Position numbers and translations under genes: made by a program
Shown: positions 10,839-26,332 of the stretch, piece after piece
Position numbering within the stretch: position 1 is the first letter of the stretch
How the letters are laid out: the number at the start of each line of letters is the position of its first letter
Notes under the pieces: generated by a model
Databases searched by the model: none
What the model was told of the DNA's origin: nothing
The model's input: the letters and a program-made list of their open reading frames with translations, nothing else
From: Actinomycetes bacterium
Lineage (GTDB): Bacteria; Actinomycetota; Acidimicrobiia; Acidimicrobiales; RAAP-2
Length of the DNA stretch: 52,551 nucleotides
Direction of reading: 5' to 3'
Assembly (NCBI GenBank): GCA_021822565.1
Contig: JAKAQM010000005.1
Coordinates: 1-52,551, forward strand

Positions 10839-10898
10839 GCGCGCCACCCTCGCGCTCGTGCGCTCACCCTCGCGCTGCTGCGCTACGGTGGCGGATAC

Positions 10899-10912
10899 CG
10901 AACACCCGTTCG
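10899..10912. promoter_or_regulatory. putative LexA/SOS box CGAACACCCGTTCG
   Basis: Perfect CGAAC-N4-GTTCG palindrome 48 nt upstream of the DprA-like ORF; matches the Gram-positive/actinobacterial SOS-box pattern. Confidence 0.75.
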
Positions 10913-10959
10913 ACCCCGGGCTTCCCCGGTCTCCGTGGAGGTCTCAGTAGGTAGGTACG

Positions 10960-11937
10960 GTGAGGACGATGCGAGAGATGGCTGGGGGCCGTGAGGAGCG
11001 CCGCTCCCGGCACGCGCGGCTCCTCGCTGTCGCCGAGGTGCTCTCGGCGTCACTGAACGGCCCCTCGTCGCAGCGGCTCGCCGAGCTGGTCGAGACCGGC
11101 GCCCTCGAAGCCGGCGCCCTCGAAGCCGGCGCCCTCGCAGGCGGCGCCCTCGCAGGCGGCGCTGTGCGCGCGGACGACGCCGCGTGGCTGGCGGGAGGGC
11201 TCGCCAGCGCGACCGACGAGCGGATCCGGTTCTGGGAGGCAGAGCTCGACCGTCTCGCCGAGCGCGGCGTGTGGATGCTGGACGCCGCCGACGAGGACTA
11301 CCCGGCGAACCTGCGCATGATCCACAACCGTCCCCCCTTCCTCATGGGCCGCGGCGCTCTCGTCCACGAGGACGAGCGGGCTGTCGCAGTGGTCGGCACC
11401 CGCAGGCCGAGCGACGAAGGGCGCGCTGCGGCGTACGAGCTGGCGCGTGAGCTCGCTGGAGGGCACGTCACCGTCGTCTCCGGGCTGGCCGAGGGGATCG
11501 ACACGGCTGCCCACAGCGGTGCCCTGTCTGCTCGAGGACGGACGATCGCCGTGTTCGGCACCGGCATCGACGTGGTCTACCCAGCCAGGAACCGGGCGCT
11601 CGCAGCTGCGGTCGCCCGCTCGGGAGCGTGCGTCTCGCAGTTCTGGCCATCGATGCGCGGGGCCCGGTGGACGTTCCCGGTCCGCAATCTCGTCACGTCC
11701 GGACTGTCGCTTGGCACCGTCGTCGTCGAGGCCGGGGAGACGTCCGGGGCGCGCCTCCAGGCAGAGGCCGCCCTCCGGCACGGCAAGCGGGTCTTCCTCC
11801 TCGACCGGCTCGTCCGATCCCAGCAGTGGGCCCGCGACATCGCCGCCCGCCCGGACGTGCTCGCTGTCGACTCGGTCGACCAGATCGTGTCGGCCGTCGA
11901 GGTCGACCTGATGACCGACACGGCCCTTCTCGCCTAG
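10960..11937 (+). CDS. DprA-like (SLOG/Rossmann) protein, no recognisable C-terminal winged helix
   Basis: VAVVGTRRPSDEGRAAAYELARELAGGHVTVVSGLAEGIDTAAHSGAL... FGTGIDVVYPARNRAL... FPVRNLVTSGLSLGTVVVEAGETSGA; start may be ATG 10969. Confidence 0.87.
   Translation: MRTMREMAGGREERRSRHARLLAVAEVLSASLNGPSSQRLAELVETGALEAGALEAGALAGGALAGGAVRADDAAWLAGGLASATDERIRFWEAELDRLAERGVWMLDAADEDYPANLRMIHNRPPFLMGRGALVHEDERAVAVVGTRRPSDEGRAAAYELARELAGGHVTVVSGLAEGIDTAAHSGALSARGRTIAVFGTGIDVVYPARNRALAAAVARSGACVSQFWPSMRGARWTFPVRNLVTSGLSLGTVVVEAGETSGARLQAEAALRHGKRVFLLDRLVRSQQWARDIAARPDVLAVDSVDQIVSAVEVDLMTDTALLA
11101..11160. repeat. in-frame 15-bp tandem repeat x4 in the dprA-like gene (GALEA/GALAG)
   Basis: GCCCTCGAAGCCGGC x2 then GCCCTCGCAGGCGGC x2. 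Confidence 0.95.
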
Positions 11938-11945
11938 GCACCGCC

Positions 11946-12671
11946 GTGCCCAGCGCCCGGGAGCTCATCCTCCCTCTTCGCGGCGCGCTGGTCCCGATTC
12001 CCGCCCAGCCCCAGGACGGCGTCTGCTCGATCTGCCACAGCAGCGCGAAGCCCGGGTTCTCACACTGCCTCCCCTGCGCCGAGGCGGCAGCGGCCGACCC
12101 GCCCGAGATCCTTCCGATCACGCTGTCCGTGCACGGAGAGCTGATCCACAGCCACCTGCGGAACTACAAGGACAGCCCCACAGCAGGCGTTCGAAGCCGT
12201 ATGAGCCTCCGCCTCGCAGCGCTCCTCGCCACCTTCATGGCCAACCACTCCCGCTGTGTCGGCGAGTGGGACTACGCCACGTGCGTCCCCTCGGCGACGC
12301 GGGTGGCGCTCCAGCCGGTCGTCGACCGCATCCAGCTCTTCGCCGGCCGCTACCGCCAGGTCCTCACCTCAGGGCCCGAGGCCGAAGCACGCCTGATCGA
12401 CCCTGCTCGGTTCGCCGTCTCCCCCGACGTGCGCGGCCACAGGATCCTTCTGCTCGACGACACCTTCGTGAGCGGGGCCAGCGTGTTCAGTGCAGCCGGC
12501 GCCCTCCGGGATCGTGCCGCCAGGGTCGTCGGTCCCGTCGTGATCGGCCGCCACGTCCAGCGAGGCTGGCCGCCCAGCGCCGAATTGCTCTCGTGGATCA
12601 CGAAGCGCCCCTGGGACGAGACCCGCTGCGCTCGCTGTGCCGGCGAGCGCCCGCGTGCCTCCCTGTTCTGA
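11946..12671 (+). CDS. ComF-like phosphoribosyltransferase with zinc-ribbon Cys pairs
   Basis: CSICHSSAKPGFSHCLPC N-terminal Cys pairs; PRPP loop ILLLDDTFVSGASV; C-terminal CARC; 8 nt after the dprA-like stop. Confidence 0.78.
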   Translation: MPSARELILPLRGALVPIPAQPQDGVCSICHSSAKPGFSHCLPCAEAAAADPPEILPITLSVHGELIHSHLRNYKDSPTAGVRSRMSLRLAALLATFMANHSRCVGEWDYATCVPSATRVALQPVVDRIQLFAGRYRQVLTSGPEAEARLIDPARFAVSPDVRGHRILLLDDTFVSGASVFSAAGALRDRAARVVGPVVIGRHVQRGWPPSAELLSWITKRPWDETRCARCAGERPRASLF

Positions 12672-13494: not shown

Positions 13495-13745
13495 GGCCCT
13501 CCCAGGTCGTCAGTCGTGTCAGCAAGCACGCCTCGCACGTCTCTGAGGAGGCCGCGGTCAGCAACTTGGCGTGAAGCCACACCGAGCGCCTCGGCGGCCG
13601 ACACGGTCCGGCGGCGGCGGAGTGGCACGATCTCGGCCACGGGGCGCCGGTCGACCGTTACGGTCAGCCGTTCGCCGCCTTCCACCCGGCGAAGCACCTC
13701 GCTCACCGTGTTTCGCAGATCGCGGACGGATATCGAACCACTCAT
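13404..13745 (-). CDS. Phd/YefM-type antitoxin
   Basis: MSGSISVRDLRNTVSEVLRRVEGGERLTVTVDRRPVAEIVPLRRRR; upstream of the PIN gene; reading frame runs about 90 bp into it. Confidence 0.75.
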   Translation of the reverse strand: MSGSISVRDLRNTVSEVLRRVEGGERLTVTVDRRPVAEIVPLRRRRTVSAAEALGVASRQVADRGLLRDVRGVLADTTDDLGGPCSMPRSSSPRSQGDLLARWRGSPRRRCRW

Positions 13746-17852: not shown

Positions 17853-19190
17853 TCAGGAGCTCGGAGGGCGGAGCAGGTCGTCGAGGAGGAGCTCTTCGTG
17901 CACCACCTTGCGGCGGCGGTCGAAGGTCTCTCGGAGCGCGGGCGACCACGGGGTGGCGGGCGACGGGCGCCGTTCCGTCGGCAGCGGCGTCCCCGCTCGC
18001 TCGGCCGTGTCCACCGCACGGACGTAGTCGTCCGCGTCCATGCGCCACGGCACCAGGCCCAGCTCATGCATCCGGCCGCAGATCGCGAGCCCGGCCGAGT
18101 CGAAGTCGCCGTGATAGCGGACGCGGGCCCCGCACCCGAGCAGCTGGTCGACGAGGAGCCTCGCCGCGGCGGAGGGATTGCCGCTGAGCGCCACCACCGA
18201 GAGCGGGCTGCGCGCTTCTGCGGCGGCCTCGACGACTCTCGGGTTCTCCACGGCGAGCACGTCGGCCCCGTCAGGGAGCACGACGGGGTGGACGCGGAGC
18301 GTGTACTGCGTGAGGTGCAGCGGCACCCCGATGCGAGATGCCTCTGCGAGGAGCGTCTGCAGCCCGCTGTCCGGGGTGGGGCGGAGGTTCCAGCACAGCA
18401 CCGTCGCGGAGACGAGGTCGGGCTGCGCTCCCGCAAGAGCCCAGATCGCTCTTCGGTCCGCCCTCGGGTCACCGCTGCCGCGAGCACCCCGACCGCAGCG
18501 GTCGCGCCCGCGGTCGCCGCTCCCGTCAGCTTCTCGACCGTGCACCGCATGGCGGAAGGCGAGAGCCCTGGCGACGGCCGCCCCCGCACGGGTCCCGCGA
18601 TCGAGCGCGTGCGCCGAGCCGAGCACTGCCGCCGCCAGCTCGGTCCGGCTGCGCGTCCGTGTCGTCGCCTGAGCCTCACCGAGGTGGTCGAGCACCGTGC
18701 GCACCTGAAGGAGGAGCTCCCGCGCTCCGCTCGGATCCAGCCCCGCCAGCAACCCCGAGCGCGCGATGCCATCGGCCCACTCGACCGCCCAGTCCTCGGG
18801 CCATGACGCTGCCTCAGCCCGCACTGCCTCCCGGGCTGCCCGGGCAAGTGACCGCTTGGCCCGGCGCTCGGCCGGCCCGTCGGAGACCGGGTGGCCGAGC
18901 GCCGCGAGGGCCGCGGGCAGCGCCTCTGCGACCCCGAGCGCGCGGAGCGCGCGCTCGAGCACACCAAGGTCCAGCGTGGCGCCGGCTCGCCCGCTGACCA
19001 GCGCTCCCAGGAGGAACCGGGCGCGGGTGTCCAGCTGCGGCAGCCGGACCCGGCCGCGGTCGTCGCTCCCGCGTCGCTCCAAGCGAAGCCGGACCGCCTC
19101 CCACACGGGGTCGAGGTGCGGGTCCAGGAGCGAAGGGGGCGCAGCCGGCGAAGGCGAAGGGGGCGTCGCCGACGAAGAACGGTTCACCAC
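17853..19190 (-). CDS. jetD: Wadjet type II JetD-like (TIGR02679/DUF2399, Toprim-type nuclease subunit)
   Basis: VLAVENPRVVEAAAEA... VRYHGDFDSAGLAICGRM Toprim motifs; last gene of the four-gene cassette; overlaps jetB. Confidence 0.88.
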   Translation of the reverse strand: MVNRSSSATPPSPSPAAPPSLLDPHLDPVWEAVRLRLERRGSDDRGRVRLPQLDTRARFLLGALVSGRAGATLDLGVLERALRALGVAEALPAALAALGHPVSDGPAERRAKRSLARAAREAVRAEAASWPEDWAVEWADGIARSGLLAGLDPSGARELLLQVRTVLDHLGEAQATTRTRSRTELAAAVLGSAHALDRGTRAGAAVARALAFRHAVHGREADGSGDRGRDRCGRGARGSGDPRADRRAIWALAGAQPDLVSATVLCWNLRPTPDSGLQTLLAEASRIGVPLHLTQYTLRVHPVVLPDGADVLAVENPRVVEAAAEARSPLSVVALSGNPSAAARLLVDQLLGCGARVRYHGDFDSAGLAICGRMHELGLVPWRMDADDYVRAVDTAERAGTPLPTERRPSPATPWSPALRETFDRRRKVVHEELLLDDLLRPPSS

Positions 19191-20467
19191 AGAGCGTCCT
19201 GACGAGGTTCGCCGGAGCGAGTGGTGCCGAACGACCCCTCCCCTCGAAGACCATCCCCTTTGCCATCGGCGCCGGGAGCCTCGCTCCCACCGACGCTGAA
19301 GCGCCCCGCTGCGGGGAGGAGCCGCACGACCGAGGTCGCCGAGGTCGCCGAGGTCGTCGAGGCCGTCGAGGTCGCCGAGGCTCCCGGTGGGATGTCGAGC
19401 CCGTCACGTCGCTCCTCTGCGAGGCGGACGTCGAGGAGGAGGTCGACGACCGCCCGCGCCAGCCTCTCGGGGCTCTGGACGAGGTCGGTCGCCCACCGGG
19501 TGGCGTGCGCGGCGCACAGCGGCCGGAGGTGCGCAGCGATCTCCTCGAGCGTCCACCACTGCTCGTGCGGGCGCGCGGTCGCGGCGCCGGGCGCTGAGGA
19601 TCCGCGGAGCGCCTCGATGAGGAGGAGGGCCGCGTGGCCGACCGTGCCGCCGGCAGGGAACGCTCGTCCCGAGAGGCTCCCAGCGGGATCGATCGCGGCC
19701 ACCCCCTCGCTGCGGACCTCGAGGAGGAGGCCGAACATCTCCTCGAGATAGCGCTCCTCCTCACCGATCCTCCGCCGCAGCTCGGCCCACTCACCCTCGG
19801 TCAGGTCGTCCCGGTAGAGGACGGGGTCCTCCACGAGACGCGAGCGCAGCCATTGACGCAGCGCATCCTGGCGCGCCGGTCGCGCGCACAGCTCCTCGGC
19901 GTCGCCGAACGCGCTCATGGCCGGCAACGGGAGCATCGCGATCCGGTCGGGCACGAGTTGCAACACCGCGTCGGCGTCCTCGTCGTCCGCATAGGCGTCG
20001 ACGTGGGCGTGGAGCTCGGACGCCAGCCCCTGGTCGATCATCCAGCGCAAGGACGTCACGAAGGCTCGGCGACCCGTCGCGTCCGCCGGCAGCGAGACCT
20101 CCGCCTCGGCTGCCGCCGAGCGCACGAGGTCCACGAGGTCTCGAAGGCTGACCACCGGCGGCCCCGCGATGGTCGCGCCGAGGACGAGGACGAGGGTCAC
20201 GAGCTCGAGCTGGTGCAGCGGCCGCCCCGACGACGTCCGCAGCGGGCGGCGCTCGGGCACGTACGTGGCCTTGGAGAGCCTCGCCGTGTCGGCGGTCACC
20301 TGCAGGCGATAGCCCAGGCGCTGGGCGAACCAGTGTCCGAGCACCGCTTCGTGGCGCCGGATGAGCCGGAAGGTGTCGGGGTCGTGCTCCTTGCACGTGA
20401 CAGGGTGGAGGACGAGATGCCGTGCCGCAGCCCTGCGCTCGACTGCCGCCTGCGGGTCAGCCGCCAT
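19184..20467 (-). CDS. jetB: Wadjet type II JetB-like (TIGR02678)
   Basis: MAADPQAAVERRAAARHLVLHPVTCKEHDPDTFRLIRRHEAVLGHWFAQRLGYRLQV; cassette context. Confidence 0.87.
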   Translation of the reverse strand: MAADPQAAVERRAAARHLVLHPVTCKEHDPDTFRLIRRHEAVLGHWFAQRLGYRLQVTADTARLSKATYVPERRPLRTSSGRPLHQLELVTLVLVLGATIAGPPVVSLRDLVDLVRSAAAEAEVSLPADATGRRAFVTSLRWMIDQGLASELHAHVDAYADDEDADAVLQLVPDRIAMLPLPAMSAFGDAEELCARPARQDALRQWLRSRLVEDPVLYRDDLTEGEWAELRRRIGEEERYLEEMFGLLLEVRSEGVAAIDPAGSLSGRAFPAGGTVGHAALLLIEALRGSSAPGAATARPHEQWWTLEEIAAHLRPLCAAHATRWATDLVQSPERLARAVVDLLLDVRLAEERRDGLDIPPGASATSTASTTSATSATSVVRLLPAAGRFSVGGSEAPGADGKGDGLRGEGSFGTTRSGEPRQDALW

Positions 20468-22124
20468 GCGCCGGCACTCCCTCGGGTCGAGTGGCGCCCG
20501 GCGCCACGTGGGCTCGCACGGGCTGCACCGAGATGCAGAGGCCGAGGAAGCAGAGCTCCCCTTCCTCCCACGAGACCGCCGTCGTCGCTCCCGGCGATCG
20601 CTCCACGATGCAGACGATGTCACCGTCGATCACCTGCGCGGAGCCGCTCGGGCCAGCGCTCCCGCCCGCTGCGGTGGTGCCATTGCCGGCTCCGCCCGCT
20701 GCGGCGGTGCCATTGCCGGCTCCGCCCGCTGCGGCGGTGCCAACGGGCAGGCGCGCCATGGCCCTGCCGGCGAGCTGCTCGAGGCGCGCGAACGCGCCGG
20801 CCGACAGGCGCGCGCCATCGAGCGACCCGAGCGCGAGCAGCTCGGCGTCGGCGCTGTGCAGCGAGGCGCGCTCGAGCTCGCGGCGCCGCCGGAGGACGCG
20901 CAGCTCCGCGGTGCGGTCGGGGATCGGGCTCGTCCGGCCGCGGCTCGTGGTGTCGCCACGGGCTCGGAGGGACACGGGCACCTGCGCGACCGGTCCGGCC
21001 CACCACGACGTGGACGGGCTCACGGGATCGAAGGCATCCCCTGCGGGCGCGCCGTAGTGGTACGCCGCATGCAGCCCGAAGGCGGCGGTGGCCATGCGCA
21101 CGGCACCTTCGGTGTCGGACGTCGCCATCACCCGCGCGAGCCGCAAGAAGTCGGCGCGGCGCGAGGACGCCCCCGCCCCGACGCGAGAGAGCCGGATCAG
21201 GTTCAACGTGAGCGAGCGCACTGCGGCCACGGCGTCGTCGAACAGCCGCTCCATGCGGGACGGCCGGCCCGGCTTCCGCACGAACCACGCCGAGAGGTGC
21301 TCCCAGTCGGCGACCGTCGACCCTGCCTGGCGCGTCACGCTGACCGTGTCGTCGAGCCCGGCGGCCTCCACCCGCCCGGCGAGCCCTCGGCTCGCCCGCT
21401 CGACGATGACGGGCACGCGATCCGCCAAGCGGGTCAGCACCAGCCCGAGCGGTCTCGACATCCGCTCGATCTCGTCGAGGCGCTCGGAGACGTAGCCGAC
21501 GAGCACCTGCGCGAAGAAGCTGAGCTCCTCGGGGGTGAGGTCGAACCGGTTCTGCCACTGGTTGACGGCGGCGAAGAACTGGGTGATCTCGGTGGTGAAG
21601 GCCTCGTGAGGGTCGAAGACGGCGCGGACGAGGTCGGCGAGCCGCTCGGAGTCCGCGGTCGCCACGTCCGTCGCGTCGAGCGTCTCCAAGGCATGGAGGA
21701 GCGCTCGCAGGCGTCCCGTCGAGATGTCGTGCACCTCGTCGGCTCGAGCGAGGATCCGCTCGACCGCGTCGTGCACTTCCTGACCTGCCTGGGTGATCAG
21801 GTAGCGATTGCGGCGGCGGTAGTAGTCGGCGAGGCTCGTGGGCGTTCCCGTGGCCGAAGAGACGGTGAGGTTGCCCCACCGCCGCAGGCTCTCGAGCCGG
21901 TCGGAGACCACGGCCGCGTCGAGCGGAGCTCCGGCCGCATCCAGGTGCGCCACCACTTCCTCAGGGGTGAACTCCGAGAAGAAGGTGCCCGCGAACACCG
22001 CCATGATCGCTCGGTACTCCTGCCACTCCTCTCCGGTCACGTAGCGGAAGAGGAGGCGTGCCTGCGGGTCGCCAGCGCCTGGCTCACCCTTGGGATCGGG
22101 GCTGGCCGGGTCGCCGGTGCTCAC
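20457..22124 (-). CDS. jetA: Wadjet type II JetA-like (TIGR02677)
   Basis: LLFRYVTGEEWQEYRAIMAVFAGTFFSEFTPEEV... QWQNRFDLTPEELSFF; GTG start at 22124 overlaps the jetC stop (GTGA). Confidence 0.87.
   Translation of the reverse strand: MSTGDPASPDPKGEPGAGDPQARLLFRYVTGEEWQEYRAIMAVFAGTFFSEFTPEEVVAHLDAAGAPLDAAVVSDRLESLRRWGNLTVSSATGTPTSLADYYRRRNRYLITQAGQEVHDAVERILARADEVHDISTGRLRALLHALETLDATDVATADSERLADLVRAVFDPHEAFTTEITQFFAAVNQWQNRFDLTPEELSFFAQVLVGYVSERLDEIERMSRPLGLVLTRLADRVPVIVERASRGLAGRVEAAGLDDTVSVTRQAGSTVADWEHLSAWFVRKPGRPSRMERLFDDAVAAVRSLTLNLIRLSRVGAGASSRRADFLRLARVMATSDTEGAVRMATAAFGLHAAYHYGAPAGDAFDPVSPSTSWWAGPVAQVPVSLRARGDTTSRGRTSPIPDRTAELRVLRRRRELERASLHSADAELLALGSLDGARLSAGAFARLEQLAGRAMARLPVGTAAAGGAGNGTAAAGGAGNGTTAAGGSAGPSGSAQVIDGDIVCIVERSPGATTAVSWEEGELCFLGLCISVQPVRAHVAPGATRPEGVPAHGG
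20665..20742. repeat. in-frame 30-bp tandem repeat in jetA (AAAGGAGNGT linker)
   Basis: CCCGCTGCGGYGGTGCCATTGCCGGCTCCG x2 plus partial. Confidence 0.93.
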
Positions 22125-25100
22125 CGCCCCTCCAGGAGCGCCCGCCCGTTCCAGCGGCTGTGCTCGAGCGCGATGACCCCCATGTCGGCGTCGCGCACGA
22201 CCTCGGTGATCGCGAGCTCCGGGACGGTCGCGTGCGTCCCCCACAGCCGTTCGCTCGTCGCGATGAAGTCCAGGTCCAGCTCGACGAGGAGGCCGAAGAG
22301 CTTCGCGTGGTTGTCCTCGGAGACCTTGGCGAACGCGTCGTCGAGCAGCACGAAGCGCGGCGCGCAGGGGTCGTGCTCGGCGATCGAGTCGCACGAGGCG
22401 GCGACGGCTGCGAAGAGCGGGAGATAGGACACGATCTTCTTCTCTCCCTCCGACAGCGCGCTGCGCCGGGAGAGGCGCTCCTCGGGACGACCGGGTCTCC
22501 GCAGGATCACCCGCAGCTCGTGCCAGGCGCGGTAGTCGAGCACCCCGGCGATCAGCTCCCGGTACGGAGACTCGGGCTGGTCCCGGCGCGCCTCGTCGAG
22601 GCGCTCGGAGATCGCCGCCCGCAGCCGAGCGTCCTCGTCCGAGGTGCGGAGATCAGGAGGCTTGGCGAGCAGCCCGATCATCGCGTCGAGCCCGGGCTCG
22701 AGTCCCTCGCGCCTGCGCCACCGCAGCCTCACCCCGATCCCGTGCGCGGTCGACACGGTGTCGAGCCTGTGGTTCATGCGTGCCACGAGGTCGGCCGCCG
22801 CCTGCATCTTCTCGGCGACTTCCTTGGCCACGAGCCCCTGGAGCAGGTTCCGGAGCGCGTCGTCCTGCTCGTGGGAGAGCAGCGATCGGAGCTCCGAGAG
22901 ACGGCTGCCGACGACGGCCGCCGCCTGCGCGAGCGGCATGCGCCCCTGCGGGCCGTTGACCTCCACCGCAAGGGGGACCGACTCGTCTGCCTGGCGATCC
23001 TCCGCGTCCCAGCCCGCGCCGAGGTCTGCGCGTCGCTGGCGGAGGGACTGGCGGACGCCGTCGGCACCGGCGTCGACTCGTGCCGGTCGAGGGACGAGGG
23101 ATTCGATCTGCTGCACCAGGTCGGCGACGCCCCTGGGGGTCTCGGGGACCGGGCTGAGGGCGGCAGGGCTGAGGGCGGCAGGGCTGAGGGCGGCAGGGGC
23201 GGCAGGGGCGGCGCCGGCAGTCGACGGGAAGCCGGCTCCCTCGCGCTCGTCGTCCAGGAGCGCAGCGTCGAGCAGACCGGGGACGCCGAGGGCACGCCGG
23301 AGCCCGGGGAGCGCAGCAACTGCGGCGCTGTCCGCTGCGCTCCGGCGCCGCTCGCGCTCGGCGGCGTGCGCCTTGGCCGCCTCGACCTCGCCCCTGCGGT
23401 CGAGCTGGGACTGGCGGGCCGGTGTGAGCTCTGCGGTGACCCGCCCGAGCTCGGCCTCGCACGTCTCTACGGCGGCGACCACCTCCTCGGCGGCGGCGCG
23501 GACCGTGTCCTCCAAGGTCGCGAGCCTCGCGGCCTCGGGCTCGTGACGCGCCACGGCATCGGCGTGCGCGGCACGCGCGTGGCGCTCGTCCTCGACGGCA
23601 CGGGTCCAGTCCTCGGCCGCGCGACCCCATGCTGCGACGCTTCGGGCCAGCGCTCTGCAGCGGTCGTCGGCTCGAGTGATCGCGCCGAGCGCGTCGCGCA
23701 AGGTCGCCTCGACCGTGCGCAACGCGTCCGCTGTCGGCAGCAGCCGCAAGTTGGCCGCCACGCGGCGGCTCTTGTCCACGGCCTCCGCGTGGAGCTCGTC
23801 GGCCCGGCGAAACGACGCAAGGCGCTCGGCCGCACGCGCCTTCGCACGCTCCCACTCGGCATCCGCCTGTTCCACTCGGACGGAGGCGTGCAGGACCGGC
23901 TCGCTCGAGGGGAGCGCAGCACGCAGCGCCGTGGCTTCGCCGATACGAGCGTCGATCGCCTGGAGGAGCCGCTCGGTCGCCTCGAGCTGCGCCGCCGCGT
24001 CGTCTCGCGCCCGCCGGACCTCTGCGCGCCGGCGCTCGAGCGCGGCCCGGCGGGCCGCGCTCCCGATGTGCTCGGCCGCGCTCTTGCGATGGCGGCCGTG
24101 GAGGGGACCGATGCGGAAGCTCCCGTCCACGGTGACCGAGGCGGATGCCACAGGGGCGGATGTGACCGAGGCGGATGCCGCAGAGGTCGAGGCGACCGAG
24201 GTGGAGAGCGGCGCGGGGAGGGTCGTCGAGATGGAGTCGAGCAGGCGCGCGACCGCCGCCGGCTGGACGGAGCCGAGGTCGCCGGGCACGTCCACGCGAA
24301 GAAGGCGGCTCAGCGGGGAGCTCGCCGGTGGCCCGGGCCGGACCACGAGCCCGCCGTCGGGGAGCACGAGCGCGCCGTCCTCCGCCAGCTCCGCCGCGAG
24401 GAGGCCCGACGCCTCCATCGCCCCCTCCAGCCCGGCGCGCTCCTCCACGCTCAGGGACTCCTGGAAGTCGACGACCTCGGCGAGCACCGTTCCGCGGTCG
24501 GCACGCTGCCAGGACCACACGGGGGGCGGCGGCAGGGTCTGGCGCTCGAGCGCGTCGAGCGATGCGACGAGGTCGTCGAGGACCCCCTGCTCGTCCTTCC
24601 GGCGGGCCTCGAGCGCCGCCCGCTCGCCGACCTCGACCGAGAGGGTGTCGTCGGCGATCCCCCGGAGCGCGGCGGTCACCTCGTCGCGCCGCCCGCCGAG
24701 CTCGCTCTCGAGGCTCGGCCACGCCGCCTCGCACATGCCGGCCGCACGGCGGTGGGCCTGCACGCGCTCGGACCACCCCGCAAGAGCCTCGCGCCACGCT
24801 CGGACCGCTGCGTCGGCCCCACGCCGCGCAGCTGCCGCCGCCTCCTCGAGCGCGCCCCGCTCCTCCTCGGCGCTCTCCCACGCCCGCCGTGCCGAGTCGA
24901 GGCGCTGGGCGGCCGCGTCCACCGTCCCGAGGGCTCGGCGCACGTCGTCCACGTCGCCACTGCGACGCTGCACGGCCTCACGGACGCCTGCGAGCGCCCG
25001 GAGCGCCGGCTCGGGGTCGAGGTCTCCTGCGGGACCCACCGGCGGAGGTGGGGGTGGGGCCGGCGAGGGCAGCGCCCCCGTGGCCGTGCCCGCCCCCGTG

Positions 25101-26332
25101 CCCGTGCCCTGGTCCGGGAGCGCGCGCCGCGCGACCTCGGGCATGTCGGGGAGCTGTGCGAGCGCACCCGCGCCCGCGACGGAGCCGGCGAGCTCGGCCA
25201 GCACGGCGGCGAGCGCGACTTGGTCGTCGTGGGCGCCCTGGGCCGCCGAGGCGAGGCGCCCGCGCACCCGATCGGTCGCGGCAGACTGCCGGGCGGCGTG
25301 GTCGGCCGCACGGTCGATCGCCCCGGAGAGCGACACGACCAGGGCGCGCAGGTCCGCGAGCTTCCCCGCCTCCTTGTACGCGGGCGACCGGCGCAGGGCG
25401 TCGAGCTCCTCTCGCACCCGTCGCTCCTCGGCTTCGAGCATGCGCACCCTCGCCGCCGCATCGGAGAGCCTGGACTCGGCGGCGGCGGCCGCGCGGCCCG
25501 CGTCCACGAGCTCGCGCTCGGCCGCCCGCGCCGCGGCGACCAGGCCGCCAGCAGCGCCCGCGCGCCGGTGCAGCTCCGCGCGCGCGTAGGCGCCGTAGAC
25601 GGCGAGGAGCGCCCGGAGCGTCGCATGGGTCCGTTCGAGCGACTCCACGTTCTGGCGGTGCTGCTCGAGGTCGTCGAGCGGCTGCGCCGCGTCGTCGAGC
25701 GCCTCGTCGGAGAGCTGCGGGAGGGCCTCTACCAGGTACTGCGCGAGATCCAGGTCGATCCGGTCGCCGACTCGAGGGTTGCGCACCACGTGGAGGAGGC
25801 GCACGTGCTGGTCGATGTCCGCGCCCCCGAAGAGGCGCCGCCGCACCTCCGCCCGGTACGCGGCACGCTGGTCGTGGCGGAAGACGGGGTCCGGCGCCAG
25901 CGTGGCGCGCAACGCGTCGGCGCTCAGGGGATGGCGGCTCTCGACCAGGTCGAGGTCCACGCCGGGCCTCCGCGAGGTGACGAACCACCAGGTCGAGACG
26001 ATGTCGGCGGCACGGTTCGCCCTGATGCCGCACCCGCACACCAGGTGCTCGTCGCCCCGGGCGACCTCGATCCAGAGGTAGCCGACGGGCTGCGGGTCCT
26101 CGCGCCCCGAGAGCATCCAGGACCGCAGGACCCCCTGCTGGTCACCGGCCGCGTCGATGCGGCGGGTGTCCGCCTCGAGGAGGAAGGGGAGCAGCATGTT
26201 CATCGCCGTGGACTTCCCCGACCCGTTCACCCCGCGCAGCAGGAGGCGGCCCCCGGAGAAATGGAGGACCTCGTCTCCGTACTGGTAGACGTTCAGGATC
26301 CCGGCCCGGTTCAGCCTCCAGCGCACCACCAC
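22121..26332 (-). CDS. jetC: Wadjet type II JetC-like SMC/SbcC ATPase (TIGR02680)
   Basis: 1403 aa; Walker A RGVNGSGKSTAMNMLLPFLL, signature SALSEGEKKIVSYLPLF, Walker B RFVLLDDAFAKV; long coiled coil. Confidence 0.93.
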   Translation of the reverse strand: MVVRWRLNRAGILNVYQYGDEVLHFSGGRLLLRGVNGSGKSTAMNMLLPFLLEADTRRIDAAGDQQGVLRSWMLSGREDPQPVGYLWIEVARGDEHLVCGCGIRANRAADIVSTWWFVTSRRPGVDLDLVESRHPLSADALRATLAPDPVFRHDQRAAYRAEVRRRLFGGADIDQHVRLLHVVRNPRVGDRIDLDLAQYLVEALPQLSDEALDDAAQPLDDLEQHRQNVESLERTHATLRALLAVYGAYARAELHRRAGAAGGLVAAARAAERELVDAGRAAAAAESRLSDAAARVRMLEAEERRVREELDALRRSPAYKEAGKLADLRALVVSLSGAIDRAADHAARQSAATDRVRGRLASAAQGAHDDQVALAAVLAELAGSVAGAGALAQLPDMPEVARRALPDQGTGTGAGTATGALPSPAPPPPPPVGPAGDLDPEPALRALAGVREAVQRRSGDVDDVRRALGTVDAAAQRLDSARRAWESAEEERGALEEAAAAARRGADAAVRAWREALAGWSERVQAHRRAAGMCEAAWPSLESELGGRRDEVTAALRGIADDTLSVEVGERAALEARRKDEQGVLDDLVASLDALERQTLPPPPVWSWQRADRGTVLAEVVDFQESLSVEERAGLEGAMEASGLLAAELAEDGALVLPDGGLVVRPGPPASSPLSRLLRVDVPGDLGSVQPAAVARLLDSISTTLPAPLSTSVASTSAASASVTSAPVASASVTVDGSFRIGPLHGRHRKSAAEHIGSAARRAALERRRAEVRRARDDAAAQLEATERLLQAIDARIGEATALRAALPSSEPVLHASVRVEQADAEWERAKARAAERLASFRRADELHAEAVDKSRRVAANLRLLPTADALRTVEATLRDALGAITRADDRCRALARSVAAWGRAAEDWTRAVEDERHARAAHADAVARHEPEAARLATLEDTVRAAAEEVVAAVETCEAELGRVTAELTPARQSQLDRRGEVEAAKAHAAERERRRSAADSAAVAALPGLRRALGVPGLLDAALLDDEREGAGFPSTAGAAPAAPAALSPAALSPAALSPVPETPRGVADLVQQIESLVPRPARVDAGADGVRQSLRQRRADLGAGWDAEDRQADESVPLAVEVNGPQGRMPLAQAAAVVGSRLSELRSLLSHEQDDALRNLLQGLVAKEVAEKMQAAADLVARMNHRLDTVSTAHGIGVRLRWRRREGLEPGLDAMIGLLAKPPDLRTSDEDARLRAAISERLDEARRDQPESPYRELIAGVLDYRAWHELRVILRRPGRPEERLSRRSALSEGEKKIVSYLPLFAAVAASCDSIAEHDPCAPRFVLLDDAFAKVSEDNHAKLFGLLVELDLDFIATSERLWGTHATVPELAITEVVRDADMGVIALEHSRWNGRALLEGR
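23151..23195. repeat. in-frame 15-bp tandem repeat x3 in the jetC coiled-coil region (SPAAL)
   Basis: GGGCTGAGGGCGGCA x3 followed by degenerate GGGGCGGCA units. Confidence 0.95.

What the first reader, a model, noticed from the sequence alone, without database searches (positions are those of the whole stretch)
10899..12671. SOS-box-controlled DprA-like / zinc-ribbon phosphoribosyltransferase gene pair (candidate nucleotide- or DNA-based response system)
Seen: perfect CGAAC-ACCC-GTTCG 48 nt upstream of a DprA-like ORF, with a ComF-like PRTase starting 8 nt after its stop. The DprA-like protein ends just after the Rossmann domain (no visible winged helix) and carries SQFWPSMRGARWTFPVRN where DprA usually has an SEYPPG-type loop, so it looks like a divergent subfamily. 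The PRTase has Cys pairs at both ends and a DDTFVSG PRPP loop. Known: CGAAC-N4-GTTCG is the Gram-positive/actinobacterial LexA-box pattern; DprA belongs to the SLOG nucleotide-binding superfamily, members of which occur in conflict systems. Inference: a DNA-damage-inducible two-gene module that may make or sense a nucleotide signal or handle ssDNA, located beside TA modules and Wadjet. It may not be classical competence, since no comEA/comEC is in the window.
Basis: partly seen in the sequence, partly recalled or inferred. Interest (0 to 1): 0.8.

Follow-up and report, generated by a model that had tools for sequence, protein, structure and literature searches.

The report
SOS-controlled DprA–phosphoribosyltransferase gene pair
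Two adjacent bacterial genes, a DNA-handling DprA relative and a nucleotide-metabolism enzyme, form a module related to a known anti-phage toxin-antitoxin system (ShosTA), and the switch in front of them is the DNA-damage (LexA) switch, which recurs in front of related pairs in distant bacteria and phages in each host group's own LexA-box form.

Summary
An exact LexA box (10899-10912) precedes a winged-helix-less DprA-like gene (10960-11937), and a zinc-ribbon phosphoribosyltransferase (PRTase) follows 8 nt after its stop. The genome (an Acidimicrobiales draft) holds only nine such boxes in 3.0 Mb; others precede recA, lexA/LysM and an imuA-like gene, so the motif is this organism's SOS operator. 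The box is exact in all four congeneric orthologues, at two different chromosomal places. It is exact at 14 of 44 related pairs, including a Pseudonocardia plasmid, Gordonia phage Vasanti and a Chloroflexi draft genome, and at 0 of 49 canonical dprA loci. Related short pairs elsewhere carry other LexA boxes: GTTC-N7-GTTC in 6 of 9 alphaproteobacterial pairs (a seventh has GAAC-N7-GAAC), and CTGT-N8-ACAG in Burkholderia phage Mana. The DprA-like protein belongs to a clade apart from canonical DprA, which congeners also carry. Its predicted structure best matches E. coli ShosA over its full length. I conclude: a LexA-controlled, short relative of the ShosTA DprA/PRTase toxin-antitoxin and defence systems. 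The kind is known; the subfamily and its recurrent SOS control appear undescribed in the papers I could search. Toxicity, anti-phage activity and damage induction are untested.

The parts
10884..10889 (+). TANNNT (-10-like) hexamer TACGGT just upstream of the LexA box
   Evidence: Sequence; TANNNT lies within 18 nt before the box in 7 of 17 boxed loci versus 1.6 expected from shuffles, so the box would overlap the transcription start
10899..10912 (.). LexA operator (SOS box) CGAAC-ACCC-GTTCG
   Evidence: Exact; one of 9 in the genome, others at recA, lexA/LysM and imuA-like; exact in 4 congeneric orthologues
10960..11937 (+). DprA-like (ShosA-like) protein, putative antitoxin/ssDNA-handling partner; likely true start 10978
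   Evidence: PF02481 2.3e-57 with no DprA_WH; TIGR00732 below its cut-off; separate SQ clade; AlphaFold model pLDDT 87.8, best PDB match ShosA 8zva over full length
11946..12671 (+). Zinc-ribbon phosphoribosyltransferase, putative toxin/effector
   Evidence: PRPP-binding loop LLLDDTFVSGA with D171, D172 and G177 invariant in relatives; PRTase fold matches incl. ComF 7p0h; weak PADLOC PsyrT/ShosT similarity

Best explanation
The locus is a two-gene operon repressed by LexA: a short, winged-helix-less DprA-like protein followed by a zinc-ribbon PRTase, related to the ShosTA class of DprA/PRTase toxin-antitoxin and anti-phage systems. Proposed working: DNA damage or phage/prophage replication makes ssDNA; activated RecA causes LexA cleavage; both proteins are made. 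The DprA-like partner binds ssDNA and/or RecA and restrains or counteracts the PRTase; if that balance fails (for example when a phage alters recombination or transcription) the PRTase consumes PRPP and bases, distorts the purine pool and arrests or kills the cell. Shown here: LexA operator, gene pair, separate clade, ShosA-like predicted fold, intact PRPP motif, patchy and mobile distribution. Inferred from relatives: toxin/antitoxin roles, the purine-pool mechanism, anti-phage function. Partial confidences: LexA control about 0.93; ShosTA-like toxin-antitoxin/defence function about 0.65.
For: Box exact in window and in G001, G005, G008, G009 with differing spacers; box set in G000 includes recA (76 bp upstream), tandem boxes between lexA and a divergent LysM gene, and imuA-like; exact box in 13/44 related pairs versus 0/49 canonical loci, 14 with Pseudonocardia plasmid L153, including Gordonia phage Vasanti; recA of boxed hosts G398, G116 and G625 has a box with 0, 1 and 1 mismatch upstream. 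Other LexA operator types upstream of related short pairs: alphaproteobacterial GTTC-N7-GTTC in 6/9 plus GAAC-N7-GAAC in one, CTGT-N8-ACAG in phage Mana. SQ-type clade (99; 93). ShosA 8zva is the top structural match, TM 0.72/0.76 over 321 columns, versus 0.60/0.69 for pneumococcal DprA. Canonical dprA coexists in congeners. The pair moves: same place in G000/G001/G005, another place beside tRNA-Met in G008/G009. Literature: P2-hotspot DprA+PRTase protects against T7 and lambda (PMC9122126); RqlI restrains the PRTase domain of RqlH (PMC4670107); ShosT disturbs purine pools and ShosA binds DNA (review PMC12593503).
Against: No experiment. The PADLOC ShosA hit does not discriminate: canonical DprAs hit the same model at 3e-48. 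The PRTase scores only weakly on ShosT/PsyrT models, and at 241 aa it is much shorter than solved E. coli ShosT (432 aa), so the second activity reported for ShosT may be missing. About two thirds of related pairs, including all Streptomyces plasmid copies examined, E. coli P2_4C9 and phage Bosnia, have no recognisable box, and box state changes 12 times on the tree. LexA control of both genes does not by itself say which is toxic.
Confidence: 0.65

Rival explanations
1. An SOS repair accessory, not a toxin-antitoxin: the DprA-like protein loads RecA on ssDNA during damage and the PRTase salvages bases or PRPP for repair synthesis.
For: LexA regulon shared with recA, lexA and imuA-like genes; DprA-RecA link is established knowledge; PRPP motif intact.
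Against: Patchy in the genus (5 of 13 genomes), carried by phages and plasmids, two chromosomal places, and relatives act as toxin-antitoxin or defence (PMC9122126, PMC4670107).
Confidence: 0.18
2. A competence or transformation locus (DprA plus ComF).
For: Relatives are annotated as DprA/ComF in public records; ComF is among the structural matches of the PRTase.
Against: Separate clade; canonical dprA with winged helix exists in congeners, near comM in G009; SOS box; mobile cargo distribution; NCBIfam comF score 12.7 versus cut-off 233.55.
Confidence: 0.04
3. The pair is the genome's only DprA and the box is incidental.
For: PF02481 finds no second full dprA in G000.
Against: G000 is 89% complete and its comM contig ends 400 bases after comM, where congener G009 has dprA; G001, G005, G008 and G009 carry both genes; box conserved in orthologues.
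Confidence: 0.03
4. Prophage or island cargo whose SOS control serves the mobile element (timing with prophage induction or superinfection exclusion), with the chromosomal copies being relics.
For: Boxed copies in temperate phages Vasanti and Mana near integrase genes and beside tRNA-Met in G008/G009.
Against: No phage genes were recognised beside the window copy; reading frames intact in five congeners with conserved box. Compatible with the main explanation rather than exclusive.
Confidence: 0.1

Closest known systems
ShosTA (shosTA; E. coli APEC O1 ShosA structure 8zva, ShosT 8zvb; P2-hotspot DprA-PRTase)
   Same: DprA-like gene beside a PRTase gene; full-length fold of the DprA-like protein best matches ShosA; no winged helix; phage and plasmid cargo.
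   Different: Short zinc-ribbon PRTase (241 aa versus 432 aa); SQFWP loop versus TEYLP in ShosA; different clade; LexA operator, none found at P2_4C9; toxin sequence only weakly similar.
RqlHI / PsyrTA
   Same: DprA-family antitoxin restraining a PRTase-domain toxin that provokes the SOS response (PMC4670107).
   Different: Here the PRTase is free-standing, with no RecQ-like helicase, and LexA control is upstream of the module.
Canonical DprA/Smf
   Same: PF02481 Rossmann domain.
   Different: No winged helix, SQ instead of SE loop, separate clade, PRTase partner, LexA operator; canonical copy coexists in congeners.
ComF PRTase
   Same: N-terminal zinc-ribbon Cys pairs and PRTase domain.
   Different: Very low score on comF model; partner and regulation differ.
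SOS-controlled toxin-antitoxin modules of E. coli (tisB/istR, symE, yafNO; own knowledge)
   Same: Toxin-antitoxin-like genes under LexA.
   Different: Unrelated proteins; here the antitoxin-like and toxin-like genes share one LexA operator and the antitoxin-like one is a DNA-recombination protein relative.

Membership tests
ShosTA class (DprA-like + PRTase toxin-antitoxin) | DprA-family gene directly adjacent to PRTase gene | tested here: met
   8 nt apart, same strand; retained in all four congeneric orthologues and in most related loci
ShosTA class (DprA-like + PRTase toxin-antitoxin) | Antitoxin fold like ShosA without winged helix | tested here: met
   8zva top Foldseek match over full length; no DprA_WH
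ShosTA class (DprA-like + PRTase toxin-antitoxin) | Toxin matches ShosT profile | tested here: inconclusive
   Window PRTase only PsyrT 7e-4; congener ShosT 0.038, family relative L063 ShosT 1.4e-8; much shorter than solved ShosT
ShosTA class (DprA-like + PRTase toxin-antitoxin) | PRTase toxic, neutralised by DprA-like partner; anti-phage activity | not testable with these tools
   Needs expression and phage assays
E. coli ShosA lineage proper | Same clade as ShosA of P2_4C9 and the Rhizobiaceae long pairs | tested here: not met
   The three long ShosA rows group apart with support 100; short SQ rows lie on another side of a branch, support 93
Canonical DprA | Winged helix, SE loop, housekeeping clade | tested here: not met
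ComF | Meets comF model cut-off | tested here: not met
   12.7 bits versus 233.55
LexA (SOS) regulon of this organism | Operator identical in type to those at recA and lexA, conserved in orthologues | tested here: met
LexA (SOS) regulon of this organism | LexA binding and induction by damage | not testable with these tools
   Needs EMSA/ChIP and RT-qPCR
RqlHI/PsyrTA | PRTase fused to RecQ-like helicase | tested here: not met
   241-aa protein, zinc-ribbon-like N-terminus plus PRTase domain only

The most novel reading that the evidence does not exclude
SOS control is a recurrent, selected property of the short DprA/PRTase lineage: operators of three different LexA types (actinobacterial, alphaproteobacterial, beta/gamma-proteobacterial) stand before related gene pairs in chromosomes, plasmids and temperate phages, so these modules act as damage-gated PRTase checkpoints that tie nucleotide-pool poisoning or defence to the DNA-damage state of the cell.
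Probability: 0.5. Interest if true: 0.75.

Novelty: new variant of a known kind. Interest (0 to 1): 0.62.

Why it matters
ShosTA-like systems are reported to act through DNA damage and recombination, but how they are switched on in their hosts is largely open. A LexA operator in front of the pair, kept in orthologues and recurring with host-appropriate LexA sequences in distant taxa and phages, gives a directly testable link: phage or damage, RecA/LexA, then induction of a DprA/PRTase toxin-antitoxin-like pair. It also suggests that many genes annotated as competence DprA/ComF on plasmids and phages are defence or toxin-antitoxin cargo.

Tried and rejected
Competence reading: rejected (clade, coexisting canonical dprA, comF score). 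Using the PADLOC ShosA hit as proof: rejected, because canonical DprAs hit the same model strongly. 'Only dprA of the genome': the gap is best explained by assembly, since the comM contig ends where a congener has dprA. A scan of IMG/VR viral contigs with the PRTase profile found no relative, although annotated phage records do carry the pair. Streptomyces copies: no LexA box, and the S. venezuelae LexA study names another plasmid operon in its main text, not this pair (supplements not readable). E. coli plasmid (L202) and Enterobacter (L203) pairs: no CTGT-N8-ACAG; the GTTC-N7-GTTC match in L203 is treated as chance, being the wrong operator type for that host. Geobacillus phage phiOH2: only a one-mismatch GAAC-N4-GTTC core, not counted. 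recA of the Chloroflexi genome (L221) and of alphaproteobacterium G803 (L215) showed no box of the expected type. The Fisher test versus canonical dprA is weakened because canonical genes may lack their own promoter; the background-rate test is the stronger one.

Full report
WHAT IS THERE. The box CGAACACCCGTTCG lies at 10899-10912 and is the only exact CGAAC-N4-GTTCG in the window. It is followed by a DprA-like ORF at 10960-11937; alignment with relatives suggests translation starts at ATG 10978. A 241-aa PRTase follows at 11946-12671. The DprA-like protein has the PF02481 Rossmann domain (2.3e-57) but no DprA_WH domain, and it falls below the cut-off of the dprA equivalog model (178 versus 191 bits). 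The PRTase is recognised only weakly by general PRTase models, but it keeps the PRPP loop LLLDDTFVSGA; the two Asp residues and the loop Gly are invariant over 11 relatives. Its N-terminal CxxC...CxxC is conserved in nearly all of them.

THE BOX IS THE SOS OPERATOR OF THIS ORGANISM. The genome (3.02 Mb, 236 contigs, 89% complete; named relatives point to Acidimicrobiales) has nine exact boxes and none of the reversed control pattern. Reading the neighbourhoods: one box lies 76 bp upstream of recA, two in tandem lie between lexA and a divergent LysM-protein gene, one lies at an imuA-like gene, and one lies before this pair. The gene names here rest on reading the translations (RecA and LexA are unmistakable; imuA-like is an inference). 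A -10-like TANNNT directly before the box occurs in 7 of 17 boxed loci against 1.6 expected, as expected for an operator over the start site.

CONSERVATION. Four congeneric genomes have the pair (G001, G005, G008, G009) and all four have an exact box with different spacers. Over 44 loci with SQ-type DprA-like genes, 13 have an exact box within the tested interval and 16 have one allowing one mismatch; 0 of 49 canonical dprA loci have either (Fisher p = 2e-5). A fourteenth exact box, in a Pseudonocardia plasmid, lay just outside that interval. Boxed loci include Gordonia temperate phage Vasanti, a Chloroflexi draft genome (L119; its DprA-like frame looks broken) and actinobacteria of other families. 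In boxed hosts G398, G116 and G625 a box with 0, 1 and 1 mismatch lies upstream of recA; none was found at recA of the Chloroflexi genome. Box state changes 12 times on the tree, so it is gained or lost often. All Streptomyces plasmid copies examined lack it.

OTHER LEXA TYPES. Searching with the PRTase of Burkholderia phage Mana led to proteobacterial short pairs. Phage Mana itself has TACTGTATGCATAAACAGTA upstream, an exact CTGT-N8-ACAG. Of nine alphaproteobacterial pairs, six have GTTC-N7-GTTC at -104 to -110 and a seventh has GAAC-N7-GAAC at -151, against 0-0.06 expected per 310 bp. This is the alphaproteobacterial LexA motif by established knowledge; recA of two of three of these hosts tested has the same motif type upstream. 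The three Rhizobiaceae plasmid promoters are visibly related, so these are not all independent. In two Rhizobiaceae plasmids checked, a second, long ShosTA-like pair stands beside the short one without a box. No box of the host's type was found in E. coli, Enterobacter or Pseudomonas short pairs or at the P2_4C9 pair.

RELATIONSHIP TO KNOWN SYSTEMS. Trees place SQ-type DprA-like proteins together and apart from canonical DprA (support 99, with the Geobacillus phage phiOH2 protein; 93 with proteobacterial members); the E. coli P2 ShosA and the Rhizobiaceae long copies form another group (100). These are quick trees with SH-aLRT support only. Congeners carry a canonical dprA as well; in the window's own genome the comM contig ends 400 bases after comM, where congener G009 has dprA. 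The AlphaFold model of the DprA-like protein (pLDDT 87.8) matches E. coli ShosA 8zva best, over its whole length (TM 0.72/0.76), ahead of pneumococcal DprA. The PRTase model (pLDDT 78.6) matches orotate and other PRTases and ComF. Solved ShosT is 432 aa, so the window PRTase lacks a large part of it. The PADLOC ShosA hit is not discriminating.

HOW IT PROBABLY WORKS. A DprA/PRTase pair protects against T7 and lambda (PMC9122126); RqlI restrains a genotoxic PRTase domain (PMC4670107); ShosT is reported to disturb purine pools while ShosA binds DNA, with T7 Gp0.7 as trigger (secondary source, review PMC12593503; the primary paper was not available). By analogy I infer a LexA-repressed toxin-antitoxin-like operon in which the DprA-like partner senses or processes ssDNA and restrains the PRTase. 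No step beyond the operator, the gene pair, the clade and the folds is shown here.

MOBILITY. The pair is in 5 of 13 genomes of the genus, downstream of the same ABC-transporter gene in three and beside a tRNA-Met in two others, and relatives are carried by plasmids and temperate phages. A type II Wadjet lies about 5 kb downstream of the window copy.

NOVELTY. The kind (DprA/PRTase toxin-antitoxin or defence) is known. The short SQ-type subfamily and its recurrent LexA control with taxon-specific operators were not found described in the open-access papers searched (most subscription papers are not covered).

Noticed in passing
L149-L152, L159 (Streptomyces and Embleya plasmids), about 10-40 nt upstream of the dprA-like start: Instead of a LexA box these copies share a leader close to CCTTCGAACA-n-CCGGGnCC-n-CGAGTAGAAGGA, in which TCCTTC could pair with the GAAGGA ribosome-binding site; possibly another operator or a translational switch.
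   Followed up: no
L204, L207, L208 (Rhizobiaceae plasmids): Two DprA/PRTase pairs, one short with an alphaproteobacterial LexA box and one long ShosTA-like, stand next to each other in convergent orientation.
   Followed up: partly
window 17853-26332: Type II Wadjet genes JetD2, JetB2, JetC2 by PADLOC; VapBC-like PIN genes (by reading) lie between it and the pair.
   Followed up: partly
window about 11098-11165: In-frame tandem repeat (LEAGALEAGALAGGALAGGA) in the DprA-like gene, absent from congeneric orthologues; low-confidence loop in the model.
   Followed up: no
L202 (E. coli plasmid), about 30-60 nt upstream of the dprA-like start: Long inverted repeat TGAACAGGTAAACTACCTGTTCA, not a LexA box; possibly the operator of another regulator.
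   Followed up: no
G004:C50, G010:C105, G012:C80: ComF-like PRTase genes lie about 0.7-1 kb from weak PF02481/SLOG matches in convergent orientation; a different SLOG/PRTase neighbourhood in the same genus.
   Followed up: no
L094 (G000:C60, box at 13643) and L096 (G000:C89): Exact LexA box at an imuA-like gene, suggesting an SOS mutasome in this lineage; tandem boxes between lexA and a LysM gene.
   Followed up: partly
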